Of a DNA stretch of 64,000 nucleotides, positions 55,576 through 55,865 are shown in pieces. This DNA comes from Bisgaardia hudsonensis (lineage in GTDB: Bacteria; Pseudomonadota; Gammaproteobacteria; Enterobacterales; Pasteurellaceae): positions 74,470 to 138,469 of the forward strand of contig NZ_SLXI01000002.1 of the NCBI RefSeq assembly GCF_004345785.1. The letters are read 5' to 3'. Numbering within the stretch: the first letter of the stretch is position 1; each line of letters opens with the position of its first letter. The notes under the pieces are model-generated. The model was given only the letters and a program-made list of their open reading frames with translations, did no database searches and had not been told where the DNA came from. The position numbers were made by a program, and so were the translations under genes.

Positions 55576-55865
55576 TTAAAGTTTTTGAATATAATATGGT
55601 TGAATACTACAACCTTGTTGTACAAGTTGTTCGCTCGTTAGCTCTTGACCACGTTGTTCTTGCGATACATTAACAGAGAGAAAATAAAATGTTGCTTTCT
55701 TGGCACAAACTTGTTCTGCAATATGAATAGGCAGTGTGCCTATGACAATATCTCCAGCTTGAATGTCATTTATATCAAGATGTTTTTCAAAAGATCTATT
55801 TGGATATTTTGTTGTTTTATCCAGTCGATAGCTCCTTGATGTCTTGATATAAACCACACAGTCAT
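55576..55865 (-). pseudogene. csx16: csx16, frameshifted (CRISPR-associated VVA1548 family)
   Basis: Two frames join into one Csx16-like protein. From the ATG at 55865, with AGGAG eight bases upstream, the sequence reads MTVWFISRHQGAIDW and on to about codon 24. At the T-run (AAAA on plus, 55789-55792) the reading must move to another frame to continue FEKHLDINDIQAGDIVIGTL and AEQVCAKKATFYFLSVNV to the stop at 55576. One extra T would give an intact 96-residue protein. A ring-nuclease role (removing cyclic oligoadenylate) has been proposed for the family. Either a real mutation, a sequencing error in a homopolymer, or a slippage-controlled gene. Confidence 0.8.

What the first reader, a model, noticed from the sequence alone, without database searches (positions are those of the whole stretch)
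55576..55865. csx16 is broken by a single-base frameshift in a T-run
A strong AGGAG-ATG at 55865 opens a frame reading MTVWFISRHQGAIDW, the typical Csx16 beginning. The rest of the protein (FEKHLDINDIQAGD onward) is in a different frame, and the join falls on four T (coding strand) next to GAAAAA. One extra T restores a 96-residue protein. If Csx16 removes cyclic oligoadenylate, losing it would leave the Card1-like nuclease without its brake. A homopolymer also allows reversible slippage or ribosomal frameshifting, making this a possible on/off control.
Basis: partly seen in the sequence, partly recalled or inferred. Interest (0 to 1): 0.7.

Follow-up and report, generated by a model that had tools for sequence, protein, structure and literature searches.

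The report
Broken csx16 in type III CRISPR operon
In this bacterium's CRISPR immune operon, the gene for a small enzyme that probably switches off the alarm signal is split by a one-base shift, most likely an ordinary recent loss of the gene and not a switch.

Summary
The frame break is real in the assembly: the N-part of Csx16 (profile positions 1-24) opens at the ATG at 55865 and the C-part (23-92) lies in the -1 frame. No frame break was found in 73 homologous loci elsewhere (69 distinct full-length proteins), nor in the 12 other Csx16-bearing genomes among 140 of the family.

The T-run explanation is not supported. The break maps best to codon 25; the four-T run is as long as the longest in 12 relatives, and 0 of 69 homologues has the residue a longer run would give. 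There is no canonical slippery heptamer, no unusual downstream structure, no conservation of the break.

Best reading: loss-of-function mutation, probably recent, in a type III-A operon whose other genes are open. Cas10 lacks HD but keeps GGDD; Card1 is the only effector recognised in the operon. A second CARF-family gene, next to card1 in relatives, is absent. Of 11 Card1-bearing family members, the ten others have Csx16 in one frame plus this gene; this genome has neither. Two of 11 related operons also carry broken genes. Assembly error is not excluded.

The parts
55872..55876 (-). AGGAG, Shine-Dalgarno-like, 6 nt before the ATG
   Evidence: read
55770..55865 (-). csx16 N-part, frame 0: ATG, 31 codons, stop; only about the first 24 residues are Csx16
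   Evidence: TIGR02620 positions 1-24
55782..55793 (-). most likely zone of the frame break, codons 25 to 28 (best score codon 25)
   Evidence: profile score by position of the break
55576..55791 (-). csx16 C-part in the -1 frame (FEKHLD... to stop)
   Evidence: TIGR02620 positions 23-92
54369..55562 (-). card1/can2: CARF plus PD-(D/E)xK nuclease effector, 397 codons, open
   Evidence: PF09002 E 6.1e-21, PF23400 E 1.4e-16
54190..54368 (-). 179-base gap where relatives carry a CARF5/NE0113 gene; no remnant found here
   Evidence: genome search
55925..56848 (-). cas6
56848..58485 (-). csm5
58494..59420 (-). csm4
59433..60131 (-). csm3
60150..60560 (-). csm2
   Evidence: TIGR01870 E 1.1e-17
60568..62871 (-). 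cas10/csm1: GGDD present, no HD dipeptide anywhere in 767 residues
53902..54189 (-). cas2 (first copy)
52819..53892 (-). cas1
52529..52801 (-). cas2 (second copy)
50752..52370 (.). CRISPR array, 23 repeats of about 37 nt, spacing 68-74

Best explanation
csx16 here is a pseudogene made by a real one-base frame break around codon 25, probably recent. Translation from the normal start stops after 31 codons and gives only the first strand and helix of the fold; the C-part has no good start of its own. So the cell makes no working Csx16. In the intact pathway (inferred from published work on other species) Cas10 makes cA4 when the Csm complex sees foreign RNA, cA4 switches on the Card1 nuclease, and Csx16 breaks cA4 to end the response. 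With Csx16 gone, the cA4 signal would decay more slowly and Card1 would stay on longer, so that infected cells more often stop growing or die. Shown here: the frame break, the intact state of the relatives, the open reading frames of the rest of the operon, GGDD without HD in Cas10, and the absence of the neighbouring CARF5/NE0113 gene. Inferred: loss of enzyme activity, the messenger being cA4, and the effect on infected cells.
For: Two pieces of one profile in two frames. The 12 other Csx16-bearing genomes among 140 of the family have it in one open frame; 73 homologous loci show no internal stop or second-frame piece. The N-part ends before the second strand of the fold (model of a relative, pLDDT 91). 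The assembly is not rich in frame errors: of 113 genes compared with a relative, 98 were open over more than 90% of their length, 5 were flagged for stops (3 at gene ends, 2 on apparently spurious ORFs), one frame candidate looks like a separate chaperone gene, and about 9 were covered too little to class. Related operons also carry broken genes: 2 of 11. Of 11 family members with Card1 over the cut-off, the other ten have Csx16 in one frame and the CARF5/NE0113 gene; this genome has neither. At 5 of 18 broadly conserved C-part columns the window departs from the family; only 1 of 69 homologues departs as often.
Against: The C-part shows no faster evolution than its neighbours: terminal branch 0.094 of the tree for csx16 against 0.093 for five neighbours, and 1 of 29 otherwise invariant columns changed, relatives 0 to 2. 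That fits a very recent break, an assembly error or a protein still made. No reads and no second isolate were available (searches gave none). The gene sample for assembly quality covers only genes shared with one relative on one contig.
Confidence: 0.65

Rival explanations
1. The break is a sequencing or assembly error and csx16 is intact in the organism.
For: 21-contig draft. The C-part evolves no faster than neighbouring genes. Related draft genomes also show single breaks in this operon, while the relatives in one or a few contigs (G075, G085, G526, G551) show none in the genes checked.
Against: Among 113 genes compared on the same contig no convincing single-base frame error was seen. The T-run is only 4 bases, so it is not a typical homopolymer error site. 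5 of 18 broadly conserved columns are changed.
Confidence: 0.25
2. Full-length Csx16 is made at a low level by ribosomal or transcriptional slippage, so the break sets or switches the amount of ring nuclease.
For: The -1 frame is the frame that a backward slip would enter, and it is open through the whole N-part. An A-rich stretch just after the break (tetramer A_AAC) would give a product of normal length. The C-part is still under normal constraint.
Against: No canonical X_XXY_YYZ heptamer in the 31 codons; no unusual downstream structure; longest T-run 4; no homologue has the break.
Confidence: 0.07
3. The protein is made from the GTG at 55857 with a different N terminus.
For: The -1 frame is open from 55857 to 55576.
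Against: It would lack the SRHxGA motif and first helix that every full-length homologue of the closest set has; the profile match of this ORF begins only at residue 23-25; the ribosome site is placed for the ATG.
Confidence: 0.03

Closest known systems
Csx16 (cas_VVA1548; TIGR02620, PF09652), cA4-specific ring nuclease
   Same: Both halves of the family profile are present, in the usual place beside a cA4-type effector in a type III-A operon.
   Different: Split over two frames; no single open frame.
Card1/Can2 loci with an outsourced ring nuclease (PMC7969007, passages seen)
   Same: card1/can2 lies next to csx16; the paper reports no ring nuclease activity for S. thermosulfidooxidans Can2 and names Csx16 as a likely partner.
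   Different: Here the partner is broken. Loci without a known ring nuclease are not rare: 66% of Can1-2 loci have one (PMC12409355).
Programmed frameshifting or phase-variable genes
   Same: A frame break beside a short run.
   Different: No slippery heptamer, no long repeat, no conservation.

Membership tests
Csx16 ring nuclease | N-terminal part with SRHxGA..W | tested here: met
   frame 0, TIGR02620 positions 1-24
Csx16 ring nuclease | C-terminal part with GDxVIGTLP and RGxEL | tested here: met
   -1 frame, positions 23-92
Csx16 ring nuclease | both parts in one open frame | tested here: not met
   one frame in 12 of 12 other family members
Csx16 ring nuclease | degrades cA4 | not testable with these tools
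   activity known from another species, PMC12409355
Card1/Can2 effector | CARF domain plus Card1 nuclease domain in one open frame | tested here: met
   PF23400 and PF09002 over cut-off
Type III-A CRISPR system able to signal | Csm1-5, Cas6 and a GGDD motif in Cas10 | tested here: met
   HD motif absent
Programmed -1 frameshift gene | canonical slippery heptamer | tested here: not met
Programmed -1 frameshift gene | stimulating downstream structure | tested here: not met
   z -0.41
Programmed -1 frameshift gene | break conserved in relatives | tested here: not met
   none in 73 loci
Phase-variable gene | long simple repeat at the break | tested here: not met
   longest T-run 4; no tandem array at the break

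The most novel reading that the evidence does not exclude
A natural Card1 system with no dedicated off-switch: HD-less Cas10 that signals, Card1 as the effector of the operon, Csx16 broken and the CARF5/NE0113 neighbour gone, so that activation would end in cell arrest or death. It is the only one of 11 Card1-bearing genomes found among 140 of its family that lacks both partners, so it would be a ready natural test of whether the ring nuclease is needed for survival.
Probability: 0.35. Interest if true: 0.5.

Novelty: new member of a known kind. Interest (0 to 1): 0.3.

Why it matters
Ring nucleases are thought to decide whether a type III CRISPR response ends in recovery or in cell arrest. 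A genome that has kept Cas10 and Card1 but lost Csx16 and the neighbouring CARF gene, while its relatives keep both, would be a natural comparison for that question. If the break is an assembly error, only the loss of the neighbouring gene remains. Gene decay in such operons is common, so the finding by itself is modest.

Tried and rejected
T-run slippage: rejected as the cause for lack of any shortening against relatives. Canonical frameshift signals: none. Other isolates: genome contigs leaves out the window's own genome; a 30-base exact pattern found nothing in viral contigs; near-identity search of plasmids found nothing. No other genome of the genus was among the 140 family genomes. Spacer matches in phages: none by megablast, which is poor for short spacers. 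Other ring nucleases in the own genome: Crn2 family PF08960 none (control rang in one genome); PF09620 (Csx3/Crn3) and PF09651 (taken as Crn1 by recall) none, but no control genome rang either, so absence is not shown. Csx15, Csx20, Crn4 and other effectors were not sought genome-wide. Solved structures: no relative of Csx16 (13 weak matches to designed repeat proteins and DARPins) or of CARF5/NE0113. Fold search of a Csx16 model: nothing at E 0.001 or better; ring nucleases Sis0455 and Sso2081 among weak matches. Fold search of the CARF5/NE0113 model (pLDDT 72.5): nothing at E 0.001 or better; weak matches to Cam1, Cad1 and ring nuclease Sis0455, so whether that gene is a brake, an effector or a regulator stays open: NCBIfam names it 'ring nuclease Csm6', PMC4012209 (one passage) predicted a regulator. 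Papers: a search for Csx16 with frameshift listed one paper, on Aeromonas veronii, not opened; a wider one listed seven, not opened.

Full report
What is there. The window lies in a 2.1 Mb, 21-contig genome, at G000:C2:74470-138469. By its relatives (Actinobacillus, Avibacterium, Aggregatibacter, Caviibacterium, Conservatibacter) it belongs to the Pasteurellaceae. The minus strand carries a type III-A operon: cas10, csm2, csm3, csm4, csm5, cas6, csx16, card1, cas2, cas1, cas2 and a 23-repeat CRISPR array.

The frame break. The ATG at 55865 has AGGAG six bases before it. Its frame runs 31 codons to a stop and matches Csx16 profile positions 1-24; the -1 frame matches 23-92. Scoring every possible break position against a profile of 69 relatives puts the break best at codon 25 (137.2 bits), with codons 26-28 within 3 bits. 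A model of a relative's Csx16 (pLDDT 91) has its second strand at residues 25-27, so the N-part holds only the first strand and helix.

Relatives. Among 140 genomes of the family 13 have Csx16; the 12 others have it in one open frame with no stop. In a class sample of 369 genomes (own included) 23 match; those of the 22 others lie in single open frames, one of them only partly matched (G298, positions 57-90). Of 74 loci given to a script 73 were matched (L094 was not), one was cut by a contig end after 31 residues, and none showed an internal stop or a second-frame piece; they make 69 distinct full-length proteins. The genome-contig scan started from N-terminal patterns, so it is biased towards genes with a normal start; searches are not, and they did recover both pieces of the window's gene.

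The T-run. In 12 of 12 relatives the longest T-run at this place is 2 to 4; in the window it is 4. At column 25 the 69 homologues have mainly R (21), Q (15), H (12) and E (7), and Leu in none. It is possible but not the simplest reading. I do not name a mend.

Switch or loss. No canonical -1 slippery heptamer lies in the frame-0 codons; four weak tetramers do, one (A_AAC) just after the break. The RNA downstream folds like its shuffles (z -0.41). A slip at that A-rich stretch would give a protein of normal length, so trace recoding is not excluded, but nothing marks it as programmed.

Age. Two tests disagree. On a tree of 11 operons the csx16 C-part of the window has a terminal branch of 0.094 of the total, against 0.093 for five joined neighbours, and 1 of 29 otherwise invariant columns changed (relatives 0 to 2 of 28-30). 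Against the broad family the window departs at 5 of 18 columns conserved at 80% or more; 68 of 69 homologues depart at 0 to 3, one at 5; its profile score ranks 11th lowest of 70. In the same tree data the window's cas10 has the most private changes (12 of 154) and its card1 the second most (8 of 71). I read this as a recent break.

Assembly error. Of 563 ORFs from 34 stretches of a relative (G075), 113 matched the window or 20 other stretches of its contig; 98 were open over more than 90% of their length. One frame candidate (copA, L127) looks like a separate copper-chaperone gene followed by the ATPase gene; five were flagged for stops, three of these at gene ends and two on apparently spurious ORFs; about nine were too short to class. 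So the assembly is not full of frame errors, but without reads an error here stays possible.

The surroundings. Cas10 has GGDD and no HD dipeptide; of ten relatives' stretches nine gave a Cas10, four with HD and five without. Card1 is open with both domains. In relatives a CARF5/NE0113 gene (PF09623; TIGR02584, named 'CRISPR-associated ring nuclease Csm6' by NCBIfam) follows card1; in one (L104) it follows a Csx1-like gene instead. It is present in 11 of the 12 other Csx16-bearing family members (all but G029). In the window only 179 bases separate card1 and cas2, with no remnant, and the genome has no match over the cut-off (best E 0.23). Card1 passes its cut-off in 11 of 140 family genomes; the ten others also have Csx16 in one frame and CARF5/NE0113; this genome has neither. 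One of the ten, Conservatibacter flavescens (G022, L031), has a stop in its card1 and apparent breaks in csm5, cas2 and the end of CARF5/NE0113; Caviibacterium pharyngocola (L036) has a frame break in cas6 and a stop in csm5; so 2 of 11 related operons show broken genes (only card1 and cas6 were checked by eye, and some genes of four loci lay outside the stretches).

How it probably works. Csx16 is reported to be a cA4-specific ring nuclease, and Can1-2 effectors to lack that activity and to be accompanied by a ring nuclease in 66% of loci (PMC12409355, passages and section 11). S. thermosulfidooxidans Can2 showed no ring nuclease activity (PMC7969007, passages). By inference the operon here would signal through cA4 to Card1 without its usual brake. 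Whether CARF5/NE0113 is a second brake is unknown: a regulator was predicted in 2014 (PMC4012209, one passage), and fold matches are weak. No Crn2 was found in the genome; the searches for PF09620 and PF09651 had no positive control.

Verdict. Observation confirmed except for the T-run; interpretation partly supported; a pseudogene of a known kind with an unusual double loss around Card1. Interest 0.3.

Noticed in passing
window 54190-54368: A CARF5/NE0113 gene that follows card1 in relatives is missing here and has no match over the cut-off in the genome.
   Followed up: yes
window 57923-57976: Perfect (TTCTCT)9 array inside csm5, coding a charged E/K repeat; arrays of four or more such units were not found in 20 other stretches of the contig or in 11 relatives' loci. 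It changes length in frame.
   Followed up: partly
L031:6303-7481 (Conservatibacter flavescens): card1 carries an in-frame stop while csx16 is open; csm5, cas2 and the end of the CARF5/NE0113 gene also look broken.
   Followed up: partly
L036:5012-5931 (Caviibacterium pharyngocola): cas6 lies in two frames and csm5 has a stop.
   Followed up: partly
L127:1507-4007 (own contig): A heavy-metal-binding chaperone ORF ends just before copA in another frame, like the chaperone-plus-ATPase genes of Haemophilus influenzae (PMC10187127, listing only).
   Followed up: partly
window 52529-54189: Two different cas2 genes flank cas1; the same order occurs in relatives.
   Followed up: no
window 63504-63703: Rfam HPnc0260 match on the plus strand overlaps a tRNA on the minus strand.
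   Followed up: no
L074, L075, L079, L090, L091, L092, L096: Csx16 domains inside long open frames of 516 to 757 residues in other Gammaproteobacteria, apparently fusions.
   Followed up: no
L104:6282-7505: In G077 a Csx1-like CARF-HEPN gene stands in the place of card1, next to an open csx16.
   Followed up: no
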